Position numbers and translations under genes: made by a program. The notes beneath the pieces are model-generated. The model had not been told where the DNA came from. It was given only the letters and a program-made list of their open reading frames with translations, and searched no databases. A stretch of DNA of 64,000 bases from Protonemura montana (Eukaryota > Arthropoda > Insecta > Plecoptera > Nemouridae), in the NCBI GenBank assembly GCA_947568835.1, contig OX387605.1, forward strand, positions 20,092,418 through 20,156,417, read 5' to 3'. Below, piece after piece: positions 1-63,396 of this stretch (position 1 is the first letter of the stretch; the number at the start of each line of letters is the position of its first letter).

Positions 1-362
1 GTCTAATGGCTTTGGTGAATGAGTGGATGATGACGAACCTAACCTAGCCTAGAAGGGAGGAGGGGAAACCCGGTGCCGGCACGTAGCCTACTCCTGTCGA
101 AGAGCACCAAGGGGACCACCGGCTTAACGTCCCTTCCGAAGGACGGTACAACTCTAACAGCAGTGTTCCCCCACAAATCCATACTGTCGGAGGTTGATAG
201 GCAAGGCAAATGAAGTTGCTGTACTAACTTTCATCCCCCCAACCTCTCTCCCGAACAGAACTGGTCTTGTGTATGACGGTCACCCATCCAATACCTGACC
301 CAGCGCAGTGTTGCTTAACTTCGGTAATCTTACGAGAACCGGTGTTTCCAACACGCCAAACC
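1..362 (-). repeat. 5S rRNA-derived SINE, copy 1 (cut by window edge)
   Basis: This copy is closely similar over its whole length to 7,668-8,046 and, in the opposite orientation, to 62,998-63,320. Read on the minus strand, about 277-352 resembles the internal part of 5S rRNA. It has the ACCGGTTCTCG block, the GAAGTTAAGCAAC block (5S box A) and the GGATGGGTGACC block (5S box C), in 5S order. The rest of 5S is replaced by an unrelated body rich in AGGAGTAGGC and CTAGGCTAGG. A 5S-like head on a non-5S body defines the SINE3 type. The 3' tail would lie left of the window. Confidence 0.8.
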
Positions 363-1608
363 GTTCGGTTTTCAAGAAACACATGTTATTTTTACGTGTT
401 GGTGAAAAATATTCTTTACTTAATATTACTTAATATTCACAGATGACAGAATATCATTTTGAAAAATAAATGCCAAATACATTTGCTCATAATTATGACA
501 ACGCAAAGCGATAGCAAGGCTAAGCTCATGTAACACTACCCTTTGTTGAGCAGCGCCGACAAAGCATAAAGAGAGTATACATTTGTTCAATATTTTTCGC
601 CTTTTGGCACAGTTTACTAATTGTAAACCTATAACCTCAGTGTTACTGGAGGTTGGCCTTCTATTAGCATGCTCAGATGTTAGCTGTTTTCAGTCGACTT
701 CAAGGGTCTCAATATCTTTCCTAGGAGTCTGGCAATCGTCCGCTGTATGTCTAAACCGCCGCGATTGTGGCATGCCGCATACAGGATAACCACAAGATAG
801 TCACGATTGGTGTGTAGATGTTGAGCAATCTTCGACCAGAACATACGAGGCATCGTCAAAGAGTAGCATGATTAGTAATCAAGTAGTGTATCACTTAGTA
901 CCTAACCACTTATCACTAGGGTTGCTGACATCAGAAAACCCCTGTTCAACTACTTTTACATCTTTTTATCATTCTAAAAACATTCTAACAAGAATTTCGA
1001 GTTTAGTTCCATGAAAATGAAATCGAAACAGATATTTGTATCGACTCTCTGAAATCGCTTTTCAACATGGCTAGATCATGAACATTTTGGTACGAACCAA
1101 TTTTTTAGGAAGTAAAACAAATCATAGTTTTCTGTCCTTTTTTTTAAATATTGTCTGACATCACGTTGCGATAGCAATTAACAACTCGCAAAACTGTGCA
1201 CATAGTTTTTACTTTTGATTTAAATATCACTATCTTATATCATCCCCTATTCGTAATTTGCATTATTGCAGATATTGATTATTTTGCCGTAATCTTTGCA
1301 CAACCCCGTCTCACTAATGTAATGCCAATTTAAATTGCTAAAAAAAAATGTTTTAACCATTGGCCTAACAAACGCCCATTCCTATCCAATTTTGCATTCC
1401 TCATTTATCCCACTTCTCTTGCAATATAAATAAAAATTGCGTCAACTATTAACAAGTACTTACAATATCCATTTTAAACAATAAATTAGCTTTAAACCGC
1501 ATCCTGATTCATGACCAATCAATTTGTTACCACAACACCAATCCGGTGGCATTTGCTTGGATTTAAATCCATTGACCGTTTCCACAACCACTCCACTCCA
1601 CTATCAAG
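363..1608. other. Intergenic, presumed promoter side of SPH gene 1
   Basis: AT-rich sequence with no credible coding region. A TATAAATA sequence lies at 1,425-1,432, 177 bases before the start codon, and could be a core promoter element. The bases just before the ATG (TATCAAG at 1,602-1,608) also end in AG, so a 5' UTR intron ending directly at the ATG, as in SPH gene 2, cannot be excluded. Confidence 0.4.
1425..1432 (+). promoter_or_regulatory. Candidate TATA box for SPH gene 1
   Basis: TATAAATA octamer about 180 bases upstream of the start codon of SPH gene 1. No clear initiator lies at the usual 25-30 base spacing, so this is only a candidate. Confidence 0.25.
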
Positions 1609-4600: not shown

Positions 4601-6640
4601 TTAGCCTAGAGTATCAGCCCTGGATTCTCATAACTCAAATACAACAAATAGGAATTTCATCATTTTTCATCATCTGTAAAGTTCCCTTATCTCCTACGAT
4701 GACAATGTGTTCAATTTTGAAAACTCGATAGTGTGATCGAAACTGCAACCTACTCTGTGCAGCCGCGACGTGAGCCACTACATAGTCCGCGCCGGTGAGT
4801 ACGACACTTCCGGTGAAGTTGAAGCACTGCCACACCAAGATCGTGCCGTAATCGAGATGGTCACTCCGAATAACTTTAACGGGGGGGCGTTGTACCACGA
4901 CTACGCTCTGATTCACCTCGACCAACCCATGATACTGAGCGACCACATTGCTGTAGTCTGTCTGCCTGAGAGGAACGACTTGTTTAATGGGCAAGGCTGC
5001 ATGGCCAGTGGGTGGGGCCGAGATTCCTTCGGTGAGTAAACGATGCCGGCAAACAGTCAGGACTTGTGTGAAAGTCAGGACTTGTGTGAAAGTCAGGACT
5101 TGTGTGAAAGTCAGGACTTGTGTGAAAGTCAGGACTTTTTGGTAAGTTCAGTTAACACCAGTTACGTTTCTCAGTATAAAAAGGTTAGTGTGCTGAAAGA
5201 CTGGATAATGAATTGGGGAAAAGTATAAAGAAACACAACTTACCGAGGCTATTTGCAGAACATGATGAGGGGTTCTGCGACATTTCTTGTTCTGTCTTGT
5301 TAACGTGAGATCTATAAACGATTTTGTAGCAAATTGCAAGTAATAAAGGCAGGAGCCGAAACGTCATGGTACGTCTCTTCATCTCTTGTATTCCTTAAGC
5401 CTTTGCCAATTATGGAATATTTGTAATTTTTTAACAAATTACCAATAACTTAAATTCAATTGTGGTTGGTAATTGCTATGATTACAGGAGGGAAACCCAG
5501 CACTGTCCTACGCAAAGTGGACCTTGCGGTGGTTGATTCGAAGTCATGTCAGAAGGAGCTGCGGAAGTCAAGACTCGGCCGCTACTTTACCCTTGACCCA
5601 TCCTTCGTTTGCGCCCAGGGTATGAACAACGCTGACACTTGCGAGGTAAGGCATGAAGTCGGAAACAGTGTTAACGAACAAACGGTGAAAACTTTTTAAA
5701 TAATGTACAAGCAGGTCTTGCCTACAGAAATCAATAACACTTTGCATGCAGCTTCAGCTGCAGACAGATTAATAAATTTCTCATAGTTGACGCTCAAATA
5801 ATAAATTTTTTAGCTTAAACATTTGTCTTTTCTGAGTTTTCTCTTAAACAAACAGAAAGTAGCCAATTCGAAAATCGTTATGTTTTGAGGTCATTTTTTA
5901 ATTCAAAATGATCTTGTCATATGACTTTTCAATAGAAAAAATATTTATTTTGGGTAAAAATCTGTGAAGATATAAAGGCTTTGACACTGTGCATTTGTGA
6001 CTTACTGCAGCATAAATTTATTACTCTAATAATAATAATGTTTCAAAATTTAAAAATCTTTTTCTCGGTAAAATGCTGTCAACATTTTCATCCCTAGTTC
6101 CAAGCAAAAACCTCTGAAAATCTAGAAACATCATCTGTGATTGGCAGATCACCTTCAAACTCTAAAGCTAAACTTCAAGTCTCCTTTGTGAATCCGGCCC
6201 TTGAAGGTAGCAGCCAAGACCTGCCAAAACGACGAGTCATTAAACATCGAGCCATTAAATCATGTATTGTACAAGATGAAGGACATTGCACAATAAGACA
6301 AATACAATAATACTAAAAAAACTCAACTAATCAGAGCGATAACATAGAACACTTGAAAATATTACAATGTTCTCTGCACTGGTAGGGTGACGGAGGCAGC
6401 CCGCTGGTCTGCCCACTGCCCGCTGACCCATCTCGCTGGGTGCAGGTGGGCATCACCGCTTGGGGCATAGGCTGCGGCAGTGATCTGCCTGCAGTGTACG
6501 CTAACGTAGCCGCGGGCCGCTCATGGATCGACCAGGAACTGATCAAGTGGGGTTACGTCATCAACGACCAACCAGAAGACATCGAAGATCTAGACAACAC
6601 CATACAGGATGTCTTCAGTAATAATAATAATATTAAGTAG
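1609..6640 (+). CDS. Clip-domain serine protease homologue (PPAF2-like), SPH gene 1
   Basis: Six exons: 1609-1829, 2788-2930, 3830-4022, 4763-5031, 5488-5645, 6386-6640. Intron phases are 2,1,2,1,0, the total is 1,239 nt, and the product is 412 aa. Residues 1 to about 22 form a signal peptide. A six-cysteine clip domain spans C47-C100 (C47, C49, C54, C88, C99, C100). The chymotrypsin-like domain starts near 130, with FGELPWM. The catalytic His is present in TAAHC (about H181) and Asp in HDYAL (about D232). The GDSGG block reads GDGGSP, so Gly (about G331) replaces the catalytic Ser. This makes it a secreted non-catalytic SPH. In arthropods PPAF2-type SPHs act as cofactors for prophenoloxidase-activating proteases in haemolymph. 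SPH gene 2 downstream has a very similar exon plan, so the two look like an ancient duplicate pair. The exact boundary of exon 2 is the least certain point. Confidence 0.88.
2022..2066 (-). repeat. SINE tail fragment, inverted copy
   Basis: The reverse complement carries ATTTTTGAGAGGTTAGTAGT followed by GTTCCT. It matches the 3' part of the tRNA-derived SINE at 40,031-40,073 and, less well, 2,171-2,213. The neighbouring CCCCGTT block is kept in the same order. It lies in intron 1 of SPH gene 1. Confidence 0.55.
2171..2213 (+). repeat. SINE tail fragment, direct copy
   Basis: The sequence CCCGTTTAGGGATCAATTTT, then TGAGCGGGAAATAATGTTCC, parallels the tail of the tRNA-derived SINE at 40,031-40,073. 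It lies about 105 bases from the inverted fragment at 2,022-2,066, in the same intron. Confidence 0.5.
3231..3506 (+). mobile_element. Inverted-repeat retroelement insertion with 13-bp TSD
   Basis: The insertion is flanked by identical 13-base copies of AACAATGATTGTA at 3,218-3,230 and 3,507-3,519, a clear target-site duplication. Inside are inverted arms at 3,230-3,295 and 3,388-3,454, which differ by one base and one indel over about 66 nt. Between them is a GATAAGTA-type tandem stretch. The right arm has CTGAAGA (3,363-3,369), a possible 5-bp stem, then GAAACGTC. This order resembles the hammerhead core known from Penelope-like elements. A related copy with an internal deletion lies at 24,619-24,699. 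No reverse transcriptase is present, so the copy is non-autonomous. It sits in intron 2 of SPH gene 1. Confidence 0.65.
4071..4117 (+). repeat. Short direct repeat, 19-nt unit
   Basis: Two full copies of AGCAGGACATTTCCTTGCA and the start of a third, in intron 3 of SPH gene 1. A small local tandem duplication. Confidence 0.8.
5055..5136 (+). repeat. Minisatellite, 18-nt unit x 4.5
   Basis: Four perfect copies of AGTCAGGACTTGTGTGAA (5,055-5,126) and a partial fifth. They begin 24 bases after the splice donor of exon 4 of SPH gene 1. Perfect copies imply recent expansion. Confidence 0.92.
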
Positions 6641-7603: not shown

Positions 7604-8046
7604 GTTAATTCAATTGATTATTGTGTTTAACGAAGCATTGTTTTGACATCGGGCCATGTGGCACTCGTCTAATGGCGTCCGTGAATGAGTGGATGAGGAT
7701 GAGGATGATGATAAACCTAACCTAGCCTAGAAGGGAGGAGGTGAAACCCTGTGCCGGTGCGTAGCCTACTCCTATCGAAAAGCACCAAGGGGACCACAGG
7801 CTGAATGTCTCTTCCGAGAGACGGTAAAACTCGAACAGCAGGATTCCTCCACAAATACATACCGCCGAGAGGTTGATAAGCAAGGCGAATGAAGTTTCTG
7901 TATTAACTTTCATCCCTCCAACCTCTCTCCCACAGAACTAGCCTTGTGTATGATGGTCACCCATCCAATACCTGACTCAGCGCAGTGTTGATGAACTTCA
8001 GTGATCTCATGAGAACCGGTGTTTCTAACACCGAAACCGTTAGGTT
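7604..8046 (-). repeat. 5S rRNA-derived SINE, copy 2 (most complete)
   Basis: On the minus strand it starts with a 5S-like head (8,031 back to about 7,953): ACCGGTTCTCATGAG, GAAGTTCATCAAC, then GGATGGGTGACC. A body shared with 1-362 follows. The 3' tail continues past the end of copy 1 and is shared with copy 3 (GCCACAT, TGTCAAAACA, then AATCAATTG). No open frame is expected. I could not define a perfect target-site duplication. Confidence 0.82.
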
Positions 8047-53500: not shown

Positions 53501-56500
53501 AATACAAGATGCAGGGTCCTAGAAACCTATTATTTCTCACAGATATAATAAATTCCCTAATCACACCTATACTCAAATGAAAAGTAATTGTAAATTTCAA
53601 ACCAATAAAATTGCAAGGCTCATGGACACCCTTCCGCTCAAATTGCAGGTGACACAAGACCGGAGAGTTCAAGCGCTGTGGTCGTGCTGAGCTACCCACG
53701 GTACTGCCGCTATCGAGGCATCGCCAAGCGGCTCGAAGGGGTTGGAGCGAAGTGGGCCAGGCATGCGCTGGTGCTGGCGCTAGGTGGGGTGGCAGCGCAG
53801 TGCCGAGATACCCGCGTCGTCTTCTGCAAAGACACCTTTGACTACCCTGACCTAGAAGGGCACGAACTGCTCTGTAATCATCTAGGTAAGTTCATTCAGA
53901 GATCTGTCGTTGTTACTTTAAGATTTGAAATGTACAATGAATCTTTCTAGTGGGCTACGTAATTTGGTTTCGTTCGGTGTGATGATATGTGAGACTTTGC
54001 CACGTGATTTTACATATGTTTCCAGAGAGAAATTCAGCGCCAACTGCAGAGAATTGGCATAGTTTTGACCATTCTAAAATACCATTAAGATTTTAACAAA
54101 CTGCACACATTCAATTGAGGTGTGAGTTGGATATATTCGAGAATTGAAGGAATGCCCTTTAGGTTCGACCGTTAAAACCGTTGAATGGTTTAACGTTTTT
54201 AGAAGGTTTCAATTATGATTCAAATGACAACAACAACCCTGCTTGCTTAAGAGTTTAAGAAATGGACAGCTGTCATGTTATGAAAATATTTTCTTGACCT
54301 GAGAGCCTGATTAACTTTTTTTGTGATAACAAGTTTCATTTTGGCTCTAGCTTTTATTTATTTATCTATTTGATGTTTTCAGGAACATATTCTGGCCTTG
54401 GCAAACCATATACTGATAGTATGGGAAAATAAAATATTGGTCATTGCAATAATGTTGCATTGTATCTTGTGTTGCAGCTCCAAACTTAAAGGGCAGACCA
54501 AGACGCAAGCGGAAAAAGCGCTCTGTCTCTCCTGGCGGCAGCGAATCCAACGAATCCGAGTCTTCTCTGTCCACCGTCTCCTCTGTTGCCAAGGTCAGTG
54601 CAATAATGCAATAACAGAAACCTCTTCAACCATTTTTAAGCTGGTCTTCCAGCAAGCTTAACAAATCATGAAATAAATGGGTGAACAAGTTTCTTCATCT
54701 GCTTTTAAGTAGTCTACTCATTCTATTTAGTCTGAACCATGCAAATTGGTCTTTATCCCTGAAATTGTAATATATTGCCTTAAATCCCTAACTGCCTTTA
54801 AACAATACTTGAGCTCTCTATCCATAGGCAGATCCTAATGCAAAAGTGCTGGCTTGGCACAAAGTATTAACAGTCAGGGTAGGGGTTTACTCAATGTAAG
54901 CAAGTAAGTATAGGTTTCTTGCCCAAACCGTAAAGTGCTGTTTGTTCACGAAGTTCATGTTGATGGTAACAGATAAAACAGCCCGCTCGCAACGGCATCC
55001 GCTGCAACAACCTTCATCAGCCGCGTCGAAGCAACCGAGTGACGAGCTGCGTTGAAGAGAAAGACTTCCTGGTCAAGCTGCACGGTTTCATGAAGATGAA
55101 ACGTACTCCCATCGGCCGCGTGCCCAACCTAGGCTTCAAAGAGAGTGAGTACACGTGCTTAAGTACTAGCGTTTGCTTTGCGTTTCTTGCGACAACCATC
55201 TAGAGCGTGTGTGTGATAGAATTAATTCTTTTAATTCTAATTTAACTCTGGCATAAATGAAAGCCTTGTGGAGCACTCGATGTTTGTTGGATGGGAGTAG
55301 ACGGTAGCTAATACTACAATAAACACGAAAACATACAAGGACAGCATACCAAGTGAAGAGGTATTAAAAAACAAAATCAGGATAAATTTAAAAGGATTTA
55401 CTTCATGTTTTGAAGCACACAAATCGTTTTTTTTTTTTACTATTTCACTTCAAAAAGTCAGTGTTTGGTCAAGTTAAGTTGCGCTTCAAAAATCACAACG
55501 ACAAACCCAATGCTATTCAACTTGCTCACAAGTTAAAAGTTGGCCGAAAGGTATACATGTTTCACGACTGATGCACCGCTGAATGGCTTGTGGGTCGACA
55601 TTCATGGCAAAAATCGCCTGCTTTCAGTTGACCTGTATGCGTTCTACAAGCGTGTGGAGAAGCTTGGGGGGTATAACGCTGTCACAGCCAACCGCATGTG
55701 GAAACTGATCTACGACGAGATGGGCGGAGACCCACGAAGCACTAGCGCAGCCACTTGCACGCGGCGACACTACGAAAGGTACGTAACTCTTTTTTTCGTG
55801 GTCTTACTCATGATCAGTTCTGTCTGGGACCGAGGTTGGATGGGCTGGAGTGAAAACGACAGCTTCACTCACCTTGATTATCAATCTCTTGATTGCATGG
55901 ATTGGTGCAGGATCATTTTTTGTAAGGCTTCATCGCACATCATTGCTGGGGATTGGTCTTGTCTAGGAAGCACATTTTATTTTGGAAGAAACTGTAGATA
56001 ACATCTCCGTGCCTATCTTAACGGCAGTCAGTTAAATTGTTTATCTTTTAGTTAATTTAATTAATAACGTGGTTCCTATTTAATTCTCAAGACCTTTCTT
56101 GAAATGTGTTAAGTAATTGGACGTTATTCATTCTCCCTGCCAATCTCCCAGCACCAGTTTTTAAAGCTTTCATAAACTTCAAGCGAAATCAACGGATAGG
56201 CAGATTTTCAGCAGTCATTTATAGCAAAATCAATTTAACAGTAAGAATTAGACACTAACCCTTAAGTTGGAAAACTATATTGCCTTGGTCATGTCTGGCT
56301 CAATGAGAAGTAGATATTGTACAACACTGATTTGAGTGTTTTATCTGCGCAGATTGCTGCTGCAGTATGAGATCAACGTGAGAGGGGTGAAGGCCAAGCG
56401 TGGACCAGACTACCCCACGTACGAAGACAGCAAACCAAGCGGGCCTGACACCCACCGTGACTCTTCCAATGATGCGAGGGTATGTAAACAAGAACTTACG

Positions 56501-58728: not shown

Positions 58729-61285
58729 GTCCTTGGTGCGGTTCTTTCGAGAACAGTTTGTGAACTTTTTGAGTACAATCGATGCACAGTATTTTTGGGA
58801 TTGGTCTCTGGGCATAGAGAGTGCACTGTTGTGTTGGAAGTGAACCGTCAATTTCCATTTGAGAGATGTTTGCATTTAAAGACTTTTTAATTATAAAGTT
58901 TGGTTTGGTATGAAGAAACATTGCATTACTCTCTTGGAGCAAGCTTGGGTTGTTGTAATGAGAAAGATATAGATAAAGGTATTAAAACCTTGTTGTAGAG
59001 CAGTCTTGACTTGTTTTTTGGACGTATCTGGTAATGTTGTTGCGCGAGCAGTCAATTCGTTGTGTCAGGCCCATTTCATTACGATGTTTCAAGCCTTTCG
59101 AATGTATACTGGCGCACTCGGGAGGTGGTACAAATCTACAAGTCAGTTCAATTCGTTGTGCCATAGTCAAGTATTTGAAACACTGCGAGTCTGTTGGTCT
59201 TTGTGTTTGAGTCAATGATGATTCGTTCATTTCACCAGTAGCCATTGTTCAAAGACTATTTTCATTTTCAATGACTGCCAATTTTCCTGCCAGTGTCAAT
59301 ATGAGAGATTTCTTCAATGAAAACCATTTTCTTAATCGGATATTGCATTTTCAGAATGGATATATATAATATAAATCCTCCGTCAATTGCAAAATTGTTG
59401 TTTTACCAAGAGCTGTCGATGTTTACTACATGTTTTAATAGATGTAATTTCAGAAACTGGTGTCCGTACATATTCGGAATTCAAGACTTATTATTAACAC
59501 CTCTCTAGGTGTCTGACACTGTGTTTTACTGCAGTTGTTTACTGTTGATCTTTTTGTAAAATCAGTTTTATTAATGTATTGTAGTTCAATCGTGCAACGT
59601 AAATCACAACAAACTCCACTCGGTCCTTTGGAAATTAGTGCAAACCTTGAGCCTGGTTTTGGCACAGAAGTAGTTTTCCATCCTCTTGTATAAATGAAGG
59701 TAGGGGTAAAAAAATAAGTTCAAGGGACCCTGTAGATGGTGATCATTTTAAGGAGCATAAAATAGCAATGTTTATGTAGGTAGGAAGTTAACAATGAATT
59801 AAGAGTCAATTGTGATCGACACAACTTTGATGCTCTAGGCCTAAATTGATTTCGAAGACTACACCGTGCTAACAGTAACATCTGTATTTTGTTTCAAGAT
59901 TAAAACGTGTTCATCATGTAAACTATTATTTTTGATGTCGAGACTAAAAGGGTCTTACAAAGATGCGAATACGAGGTCAGAAATAGTTTTTGTACACATT
60001 CTGATTATCTGTAATCTCACCTATAGGTACCTAGAGATAGTACCCAAATGTCCCAATGTTCAGGCATGGTTGTCAGTGGCCAAGCTAGGTTATTGCCAAA
60101 GAACATTTCTTTTTTATGTGATGTTTGTGTAGGACCTTGTAGACGAGAAGAAAATGTGTACATACTGCATTGATTTTAATTGTACTGTTACGAAGCTATT
60201 GTGAGTTCAATGTACAATTATGTGAGCTGTACGGTTCTTATTGAAACGTAGAGCATTATTTGTGTACAGAAAAAAATCATTATCTACTGGATAATACAAT
60301 ATTATTCATATGGACAACTACTTTTTTACTAGCACCAGCACCAATCCTTTAATATTTCAATTCCATATTCCATATTTCATATTCCATTTTTTTTTGTGTT
60401 TTATAAAAAACACAGGTCCACACGCAGATAAAAACACACACAGACCTAAACAAGTTTTGGTGTGATTTTTAATGAACAGGGAGAAGTAATTTGAAGTAAG
60501 CCGAGCAAAGCCAACCGAAGTAAAGTTGCTCCAATCGTCTAGCCGGATTATTTTATTTTTTTATTTTATCCATCTGAGCTAAACTGGGAAGGCCAATAAC
60601 TGTTCTGTTTTACATGTAGTTATTTTTGTCATACCCCTGTGAGAAAACATTGTTGGTTTTTTATCGAATAGTGGCTGAATATCCAAAGCAAACTTGCATG
60701 GATACTGCATTACTGCACATTAAAACTAGTAGCATAAATGTTGAATAGTTCCTATTCAATGACAGTAGTATAACTAGCTCGAACTAACGCAATTTGTGTT
60801 GCGTTGTAGATGAGCAGAGCGAAAGTTGCGGCTGGTAAAAATTAAGTAATTTTATCTTAAGTTCAAACTGCACTCCATAGAGACAAAACGGAAGGCCGTG
60901 CCGTAGTCACGTGATATCGTTGGAATCCTAATTCACGCTTGTCAAGCATATGCGTAGATTTGTTTGTCCTGGAGCAAAAATGCACAAAATTTGCCAGAAA
61001 ATTCCAAATAAAAAGTTAACGAAGCCAAGAACAGTCTTAAATTATTTGAAAAAGCTTTATTTTGATGCGTTTTGCACATTAGCAAAGATTGGTAAAAAAA
61101 TATAAAATACTCGCTTCGCTCATCAGCAACGTACATTTTCGAAGAATAAACCTGGTGAGCCAAAATAAATCCTTTATCTGCTATGTACTCGATTGTTTTA
61201 CATTTTACCTGAAAGGTAGGGCCATTAAAAAGGTGGCACATTTAGTAAGTTTCCTCGCAATTTTTCCTCGCATTTTCTTTGAGAA
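58729..61285. other. ARID5 3' UTR and intergenic sequence
   Basis: AT-rich sequence with no credible gene. A Pumilio-type TGTACATA lies at about 60,157. I could not fix the poly(A) site. Confidence 0.45.
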
Positions 61286-61461
61286 TCTCAAATAACCTGG
61301 ATATAGCATAGGATCCAGCCAGCTGATCTCAACTTACCTGGATATAGCATAGGATCAGCCAGCTGATCTCAGGTAACCTGGAATCTGGATAGAGCATAGC
61401 ATCCAGCCAGCTCACTCAAATAACCTGGATAGAGCATAGGATCAAGCCAGCCGGCCAGGTA
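61286..61461 (+). repeat. Tandem repeat, about 40-46-nt unit x 4
   Basis: Four diverged copies of a unit around ACCTGGATATAGCATAGGAT, then CCAGCCAGCT. Copies 3 and 4 carry GGATAGAGCATAG instead of GGATATAGCATAG. Confidence 0.88.
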
Positions 61462-61545: not shown

Positions 61546-61615
61546 TGGAAATAACATTCCCGTCGCCTCTGTGTAGGACATCCCGTAACAATGTATTAAA
61601 TGTATTTTATTTACT

Positions 61616-62408
61616 AACGACAGAGATAACCGTAAGCATTTTAGCAATTGTTTCGAAATGGTAGCTATCACAAAGTTTTTGGGCATTCAAATTGATCAAC
61701 ATTTCAAGTGGCACCATCATATTGTCATGCTTTCTCCTAAGTTAACTGTAGCCTGTTATGCTCTCAGGAAAATAGCCACCCTAGCTAACTTTGAGACGGT
61801 ACTTATGGTTTATCACGCCTACTTCCACTCTGTTATGAAGTATGGTTTAATGTTTTGGGGGAACTCAACACTTGCTCAAAGTATTTTCAAAATCCAAAAG
61901 AAAGCCATCAGAATTGTAGCCAGAGTCAGAGGTCGAACCAGTGTACGCAAATTTTTTATCAAATATAATGTTTTAACTCTATTTTCCCAGTATATTTATG
62001 ACTGCGCATTATTTGTATACAAAAACAAGTCTGATTTTATTTTAAATAGGGATATACACGATCACGATACCAGGCACCCACATAACTTATCTATTAATAA
62101 ATACAGAACGACTAAGTTCATAAAACAGATCGGTGGAGCTTGCCCTACCATTTTTAACAAGCTACCCGAACATTTTAAATCAAGTGACTCGCTATCCCAG
62201 TTCAAATCAGCTCTACATAAATTCTTAGTTACAAATTGTTTTTATAGTTTAAATGAATTTTTGACTACAAATAATTATTTGTGATTTTACTGTACATATT
62301 TAAATTCTGTATTTTATTGTATTTTTATTATTAAGAGGGCGCTAATCCGTTCAACATTGTAACAAAATGTTTCATGGAAAATAAATAAAAAAAAAAAAAA
62401 AAAAAAAC
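61616..62408 (+). mobile_element. 5'-truncated LINE ending in poly(A)
   Basis: The element contains the 3' end of a reverse-transcriptase ORF (61,658-62,284), a 3' UTR, AATAAATAAA and then a run of about 20 A ending at about 62,407. A 5'-truncated copy with a poly(A) tail is the usual product of target-primed reverse transcription. The 5' edge is uncertain and I could not identify a target-site duplication with confidence. Confidence 0.8.
61658..62284 (+). pseudogene. Partial jockey-type LINE ORF2, C-terminal part of RT
   Basis: A 208-aa open frame begins inside the protein. It shows the pattern typical of the end of the RT domain in Jockey/I-group LINEs: TKFLGIQID, a YALRKI block, SVMKYGLMFWGNS, KIQKKAIRIVA, and a later conserved-looking RTTKF block. 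The endonuclease and the RT catalytic motifs (YxDD region) are missing through 5' truncation, so it is not functional. The frame itself is undamaged and ends in TGA next to the poly(A) signal, so the insertion is fairly recent. Confidence 0.82.
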
Positions 62409-62997: not shown

Positions 62998-63396
62998 ATA
63001 TGGGTGACCAACATACACATGACCAGTTCTGTTCGGGAGGGAGGTTAGAGGGTTGAAAGTTAGTTCAGCAACTTAACTCGCCTTGCTTATCTACCTCTCG
63101 ACAGCATGGATTTGTGGAGGAATCCTGTGGTTCGAGTTGTAATTTTTTCAATTGCTGTCAATTATTCAATTGTTCAATTGCGGAGGGGACGTTAAGCCAG
63201 TGGTCCCATTGGTGCTCGTCGACAGGAGTAGGCCACGTGCACCGGGTTTTCCCTCCTTCCTTCTTAATAAGGTAGGTAAATCATCATTCTCATCATCACT
63301 CACTCATTTACCGGCACTATTAGACCAGTGCCACATTATTGTCCGTTGTCAAAACAGTGCGTCGTAAAACGTCACTAATCAATCAATCAATCTGTA
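62998..63396 (+). repeat. 5S rRNA-derived SINE, copy 3
   Basis: It begins inside the 5S-like head (TGGGTGACC), so it is 5'-truncated. It then follows the same body as copies 1 and 2 (GACGTTAAGCC, ACAGGAGTAGGCC, CACCGGGTTT). A 38-base CAATTG-rich stretch (63,143-63,180) replaces the corresponding body segment. It ends with the tail shared with copy 2 and the simple repeat AATCAATCAATCAATC, a typical SINE 3' end. Confidence 0.78.

What the first reader, a model, noticed from the sequence alone, without database searches (positions are those of the whole stretch)
7604..8046. A 5S-rRNA-headed SINE family in this arthropod
Three copies (1-362, 7,604-8,046, 62,998-63,396) share a body, and two keep a head with the 5S rRNA internal promoter blocks in order (GGTTCTC, GAAGTTAAGCAAC, GGATGGGTGACC). 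SINEs with 5S-derived heads (SINE3 type) are known mainly from some vertebrates and few other animals; tRNA heads are the rule in insects. Three copies in 64 kb suggests a large family.
Basis: partly seen in the sequence, partly recalled or inferred. Interest (0 to 1): 0.7.

Follow-up and report, generated by a model that had tools for sequence, protein, structure and literature searches.

The report
A 5S SINE with tandem promoters
This animal genome carries a large family of short mobile elements whose front end comes from a 5S ribosomal RNA gene, and in many copies, mostly near the ends of chromosomes, that 5S promoter piece is repeated several times in a row inside an otherwise complete element.

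Summary
The window has three copies of one SINE family; copy 1 matches the whole 5S rRNA model (64 bits). The head consensus aligns with the species' own 5S genes (score 93; best of 2000 shuffles 28). A head-body junction 28-mer occurs at 6,441 places. 5S-headed SINEs (SINE3) are known from a beetle and moths, so that alone is a new member of a known kind.

The unexpected part lies outside the window. In one body lineage the 91-bp 5S core is tandemly repeated, 3 to 19 heads in copies read, between 5' head and body. The tandem-junction 28-mer occurs 21,309 times (reversed control 0). Eight of 19 near-full-length multi-headed copies have target-site duplications. Array units are nearly independent, with slight homogenisation in longer arrays. 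Of the 40 best matches to a five-headed query, 34 lie within 3 Mb of a contig end; of the 40 best to single-headed copy 2, 2 do. Closest known: SINE-derived satellites of reptiles. Best reading: a SINE3 lineage mobilised with a promoter array, like mouse L1 monomers; the rival, satellite growth in place, is close behind.

The parts
1..370 (-). SINE copy 1, single-headed, cut by the window start; element positions 1-383 in the window, remainder in L009
249..369 (-). 5S rRNA-like head of copy 1; quoted blocks at 334-340 (GGTTCTC), 310-322 (box A region), 278-289 (box C region); box places named from recall and the papers
   Evidence: RF00001, 64.1 bits, model 1-120; blocks read
7604..8046 (-). 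SINE copy 2, single-headed, about 10% diverged; element positions 1-427 at 8046-7623, then tail
7955..8017 (-). 5S promoter blocks of copy 2: GGTTCTC 8011-8017, box A region with two changes 7987-7999, box C region 7955-7966
   Evidence: read
62998..63396 (+). SINE copy 3, old (about 14% body divergence), 5' end at element position 84: box C only, body with a short insertion, (AATC)n tail
55805..55912 (+). old fragment of the same family, element positions 98-205, 77% identity
8313..8335 (-). 23-bp match to the 3' tail (element 409-431), origin unknown

Best explanation
The family is a SINE3: a Pol III retroposon with a 5S rRNA-derived head (element 1-93), a body and a short 3' tail ending in (AAT)n, mobilised in trans by an unidentified LINE. 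In one body lineage (M), a join at the 6-base microhomology AAGTTA (element 50-55 and 141-146) duplicated a 91-bp piece that begins at box A and contains the internal promoter blocks. Once duplicated, the piece varies in number by slippage or template switching during reverse transcription, and the multi-headed RNA is itself retrotransposed, so arrays of several promoters arrive with the insertion; limited exchange follows. Shown by sequence: 5S origin, tandem anatomy, TSDs around arrays, link between body lineage and array, near-independence of units, enrichment near contig ends. Inferred: Pol III transcription, LINE dependence, reverse transcription as the source of array growth, and that contig ends are chromosome ends where arrays accumulate by targeting or tolerance.
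For: 5S head. Anatomy 1-49 + n x (50-140) + 141-432. Counts with 28-mers, <=1 mismatch: tandem junction 21,309, 5S-head-to-box A 3,105, head-to-body 6,441, reversed controls 0. TSD >=8 bp in 8 of 19 multi-headed near-full-length copies against 5 of 342 mismatched flank pairs; single-headed 23 of 29 against 11 of 812. Body tree of 69 copies: 5 changes of the multi/single label against a minimum of 18 in 500 shuffles. Unit identity is flat with unit distance (0.961 at 1, 0.967 at 10) and within about 0.03 of a rough value for independent units in 38 arrays. A G/A polymorphism at unit site 22 is mixed inside 32 of 38 arrays. Unit and body divergence are similar if only body 141-319 is counted (means 0.017 and 0.023, p 0.17, Spearman 0.37; 33 copies; the cut was chosen).
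Against: Within-locus identity slightly exceeds between-locus identity (mean 0.003, 29 of 38 arrays, p 0.014) and the excess grows with array length (Spearman 0.46, p 0.004), as in reptile satellites. Some arrays look younger than their insertion, clearest in L022 870-1547 (units 1.7%, body 16%) and L033 4407-5912 (1.7%, 7%). With the whole body counted, units are less diverged than bodies (0.017 and 0.031, p 0.0002) and uncorrelated with them. L017 and L033 arrays show higher-order repeats. In a 95% identical segment pair (L033/L034) arrays have 10 and 10 heads but also 13 and 3, and the equal pair is not clearly collinear (diagonal 0.952, off-diagonal 0.947). Copies for the tree were mostly picked by similarity to a multi- or single-headed query, which helps them cluster. 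Promoter parts of units are not more conserved than the spacer. No LINE partner; no transcription data. After I lowered this from 0.55 to 0.5.
Confidence: 0.5

Rival explanations
1. SINE-derived satellite: single-headed copies inserted, and arrays grew later in place by unequal exchange, with unit exchange between loci that keeps arrays alike, favoured near chromosome ends.
For: Precedent in squamates with a subtelomeric bias (PMC10702118, sections read). End enrichment here. Higher-order repeats. Old bodies with young units. Small within-locus excess that grows with array length. A second, tRNA-like array in the same genome.
Against: Growth from one resident unit alone predicts clearly higher identity within than between loci and between neighbours; the excess is only 0.003 and identity is flat with distance. 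Head multiplication follows body lineage. It needs strong exchange between loci to explain mixed units.
Confidence: 0.35
2. The arrays are formed anew at each insertion by template switching of the reverse transcriptase among many single-headed or few-headed RNAs.
For: Microhomology at the join, mixed units, TSDs.
Against: The young single-headed S lineage has the same microhomology, yet its copies read show one head; the exception is L002, with extra partial units upstream of an S-type body.
Confidence: 0.12
3. Ordinary SINE3 family; the arrays are an assembly artefact or unrelated satellite next to SINEs.
For: Arrays are hard to assemble (general knowledge).
Against: Dispersed loci with different flanks, 5' and 3' parts of one element around the array, and TSDs.
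Confidence: 0.03

Closest known systems
SINE3 of insects (SINE3-1_TC, HaSE3, PxSE4, PxSE5, LaSE2, CsSE2)
   Same: 5S-derived head with boxes A, IE, C; consensus 294-389 bp in the table of PMC8010984 (about 430 bp here); short repeat tail; TSDs in some HaSE3 relatives; 1,952 and 4,415 copies of PxSE5 and PxSE4 (passages of PMC3272025, PMC8010984, PMC10886601)
   Different: No tandem head array mentioned in the passages seen; bodies and tails not compared, their sequences are not held
SINE-derived satellites of squamates (sSat1-3), PMC10702118 (outline, sections 5, 18, 19)
   Same: Tandem repeats of part of a SINE (with promoter box B in snakes), SINE sequence at the flanks, thousands of loci in most snakes, subtelomeric bias, more homogeneous when longer
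   Different: Reptile Squam SINEs; most loci there have one extended terminus. Here the unit is a 5S promoter core, 19 copies read have both termini, TSDs surround 8 of these, and units are nearly independent
Mouse L1 5'UTR monomers (PMC9022269, start of abstract in search listing)
   Same: Tandem promoter monomers belonging to a retrotransposon lineage
   Different: Pol II, autonomous LINE (recalled); here a short element with a 5S-type promoter
Cassandra and Ajax, 5S promoter in LTR elements (PMC10886601 passages; PMC7215508 title and abstract start in listing only)
   Same: 5S promoter captured by a retroelement; long tandem arrays reported for Cassandra
   Different: LTR elements with TSDs of fixed short length (5 bp for Ajax); here no terminal repeats were seen and TSDs vary

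Membership tests
SINE3 (5S-headed SINE) | Head derived from 5S rRNA, promoter blocks in order | tested here: met
   RF00001 hits and alignment to own 5S genes
SINE3 (5S-headed SINE) | Retroposition hallmarks: TSD, 3' simple-repeat tail, dispersed | tested here: met
   23 of 29 single-headed and 8 of 19 multi-headed near-full-length copies with TSD >=8; (AAT)n or (AATC)n tails
SINE3 (5S-headed SINE) | Pol III transcription | not testable with these tools
   no RNA data
SINE3 (5S-headed SINE) | 3' tail shared with a partner LINE | not tested
   No search for a reverse transcriptase family was sent; the family searches that were sent (RF00001, PF00115) did not complete. A motif scan of open frames in the fetched stretches showed no reverse transcriptase that I recognised
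SINE-derived satellite (sSat) | Tandem repeat of a SINE portion flanked by SINE sequence | tested here: met
SINE-derived satellite (sSat) | Preference for subtelomeric regions | tested here: met
   34 of 40 best matches to a five-headed query within 3 Mb of a contig end; uniform expectation 27%; that contig ends are telomeric was not tested
SINE-derived satellite (sSat) | Homogenisation inside loci, stronger in longer ones | tested here: inconclusive
   no decline with unit distance, but a small within-locus excess (0.003, p 0.014) that grows with length (Spearman 0.46, p 0.004)
Mouse L1-type promoter monomers | Autonomous LINE with ORFs behind the monomers | tested here: not met
   the element behind the array is about 290 bp of body and tail, too short for LINE ORFs; the likeness is of working principle only
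Cassandra/Ajax-type LTR element | LTRs and fixed-length short TSD | tested here: not met
   element ends differ (head and AT-rich tail); TSDs found range from 8 (the threshold) to 24 bp

The most novel reading that the evidence does not exclude
A SINE lineage that carries a heritable, variable-length array of complete 5S-type Pol III promoters and is mobilised as such: the Pol III counterpart of mouse L1 monomers. Each head could nucleate its own transcript, so promoter number becomes an evolving trait. The same genome does something similar to a tRNA-like repeat, pointing to a general process acting on Pol III promoters at chromosome ends.
Probability: 0.38. Interest if true: 0.75.

Novelty: new variant of a known kind. 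Interest (0 to 1): 0.57.

Why it matters
It links two repeat classes usually kept apart, SINEs and satellites, in one element with readable joints, and extends SINE-derived arrays from reptiles to a likely arthropod and to 5S heads. Over twenty thousand extra 5S-type promoter cores (if functional) would lie mostly near chromosome ends, where they could affect Pol III factor balance, boundaries or recombination. Array length in polymorphic insertions makes the question 'inserted as array or grown in place' directly testable.

Tried and rejected
Inverted array pairs about 3.5 kb apart first looked like a foldback DNA transposon; L033/L034 show two convergent multi-headed SINEs inside a duplicated, gene-like segment, so this was dropped. 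I first thought the tRNA-like array in L017 shared the SINE's tail (note); comparison of L014-L017 and L053 shows the tail there is a separate 20-bp match, so that claim is withdrawn. Internal initiation from downstream heads (5' ends near unit position 92) was considered: the starts seen (74 to 123) are too few and too broad to tell from random truncation. Stronger conservation of the promoter part of the units was tested and not found (promoter part 3.1%, spacer 1.8% divergence). An apparent strand bias in the listing may be a listing effect and is not used. Unit site 22 carries A more often in first and last units than inside (28 of 74 against 42 of 207, p 0.0045); this fits structured inheritance of arrays but is one site.

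Full report
Observation. The window holds three copies of one repeat. Read on the minus strand, copy 1 (370..1) matches the whole Rfam 5S rRNA model with 64.1 bits, the only gathering-level hit in the window. Copy 2 (8046..7623 plus tail) keeps the first and third quoted block and has two changes in the second. Copy 3 (63000..63370 plus tail) starts at element position 84 and keeps box C only. Body divergence is about 5, 10 and 14%.

The head. The SINE consensus (7 copies) aligns to one of them from element 18-93 to 5S 17-92 with a few one-base gaps; local score 93, against a maximum of 28 in 2000 single-base shuffles. Rfam gives the genes 104-113 bits and three SINE copies 47-64 bits. The 5S origin is settled.

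The family. The first look of the DNA search listed 6,728 candidate places (40 scored). 28-mers with up to one mismatch give 3,105 places for the 5S-head-to-box A joint and 6,441 for the head-to-body joint, none for the reversed patterns. In 19 unselected 10-kb stretches (L010-L028, round-number positions on 10 contigs) the family covers 9,348 of 190,000 bases, with 26 pieces in 13 of 19 stretches. Young single-headed copies differ from their consensus by 0.3-3% in the body. Of near-full-length single-headed copies (start <=12, end >=420, flank long enough; window and L001 left out) 23 of 29 have a TSD of 8 bp or more at the element, against 11 of 812 mismatched flank pairs. Tails are (AAT)n or (AATC)n.

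The arrays. In the unselected stretches several copies showed the head piece 50-146 repeated with a 91-bp period. The anatomy is element 1-49, then n times 50-140, then 141-432. The unit starts at the box A region and contains the 5S promoter blocks; the joint sits at a 6-base microhomology (AAGTTA at 50-55 and 141-146). The tandem joint occurs 21,309 times genome-wide, about 3.3 per head-to-body joint. Among the copies read, 39 have 3 to 19 heads and 42 have one (many were chosen by query, so this is no genome-wide ratio). Of 19 near-full-length multi-headed copies, 8 have TSDs of 8-24 bp, among them one with 14 heads and one with 10, against 5 of 342 mismatched pairs. Two more (L036, L050, 5 heads each) have TSD-like flanks with one mismatch, by eye.

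Lineage. Bodies fall into lineage M (161C, 212T, 219C, 270C, 394T, 401A) and lineage S (161T, 212C, 219A, 270T, 394G, 401T). Site 212 is T in 30 of 33 multi-headed bodies and C in 31 of 34 single-headed ones. On a body tree of 69 copies the multi/single label changes 5 times, against at least 18 in 500 shuffles. Most of these copies were chosen by similarity to a single-headed or five-headed query, which favours clustering. In the unselected stretches 4 of 5 multi-headed bodies have 212T and 219C, as does 1 of 5 bodies with one full head (L023 4794, which has a partial unit upstream). An exact M marker occurs 2,604 times and an exact S marker 784 times.

How old are the arrays? In 38 arrays of three or more units, identity does not fall with distance between units and lies within about 0.03 of a rough value for independent units. 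Within-locus identity exceeds between-locus identity by only 0.003 on average, but significantly (29 of 38, p 0.014), and more in longer arrays (Spearman 0.46, p 0.004). A G/A polymorphism at unit site 22 is mixed inside 32 of 38 arrays. So arrays were not grown simply from one resident unit after it had aged. With the whole body counted, units are younger than bodies (0.017 and 0.031, p 0.0002, no correlation), and a few copies have old bodies with young units. If only body 141-319 is counted, a cut chosen afterwards to leave out the repeat-like 3' part, the two are similar (0.017 and 0.023, p 0.17, Spearman 0.37); in 33 single-headed copies head and body agree (0.0235 and 0.0233). L017 and L033 contain higher-order repeats. 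I favour arrays delivered by retrotransposition with some later exchange, and keep growth in place with exchange between loci as a close rival.

Place. Of the 40 best places for a five-headed query (25 of them read, all with five or more heads), 34 lie within 3 Mb of a contig end (median 1.5 Mb). Of the 40 best for single-headed copy 2 (28 read, 27 single-headed, L002 with extra partial units), 2 do (median 6.25 Mb); uniform expectation 27% (places). On contig C1 up to 31.19 Mb, where the M listing of 100 places ends, M markers are 74 at the ends and 26 inside, S markers 18 and 41 (Fisher p 1.4e-7). The boundaries 2.4 and 28.8 Mb were set after seeing the lists, and S is itself mildly end-enriched there. 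That contig ends are chromosome ends was not tested.

A second array. A tRNA-like repeat with an A-box-like region (motif recalled) in 52-bp tandem units occurs in L016, L017 and L053, and its joint 28-mer 11,896 times. It has its own upstream and downstream sequence; whether it is a SINE was not settled. ARAGORN found no tRNA in L017.

Known or new. 5S-headed SINEs are published for Tribolium and several moths (passages of PMC3272025, PMC8010984, PMC10886601). The nearest relative of the arrays is the SINE-derived satellite of squamates, also subtelomeric (PMC10702118, outline and sections 5, 18, 19); its authors leave open whether such satellites exist outside squamates. The searches aimed at SINE arrays or 5S tandem arrays (20 of 39 papers listed, 2 of 2, 7 of 7, 5 of 5) listed no paper whose title or abstract start names a tandem 5S-head SINE in an arthropod. 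Only open-licence PMC papers are held. Hence: new variant of a known kind.

Noticed in passing
L016 1106-1478, L017 1221-1720, L053 1-374; joint 28-mer 11,896 places in G000: A tRNA-like repeat with its 5' part in 52-bp tandem units, ending in a single B-box-like stretch. Of the 100 exact places listed on contig C1, 40 lie below 1.13 Mb, 9 between 19 and 26.1 Mb and 51 above 28.8 Mb.
   Followed up: partly
G000:C11:72-105741: 5S rRNA genes at the start of a chromosome-scale contig, partly in a 9.5-kb repeat with three genes per unit in both orientations (40 places listed).
   Followed up: no
L033 463-5912 and L034 433-4959: Two convergent multi-headed SINEs inside a 4.9-kb gene-like segment that is repeated 2.3 Mb away at 95% identity; head numbers 10 and 10, 13 and 3.
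   Followed up: partly
element position 269-272 in lineage S: The young single-headed consensus has a TTTT inside the body, a possible weak Pol III terminator, that the lineage M body lacks.
   Followed up: no
L002 199-3426: Cluster of arrays in both orientations, with bodies cut near positions 251-257, around one S-type copy.
   Followed up: no
window 61589-62284: 231-codon open frame that reads like a non-LTR reverse transcriptase fragment by eye; Pfam found no family.
   Followed up: partly
window 61285-61451: Imperfect 40-bp tandem repeat, 4 copies.
   Followed up: no
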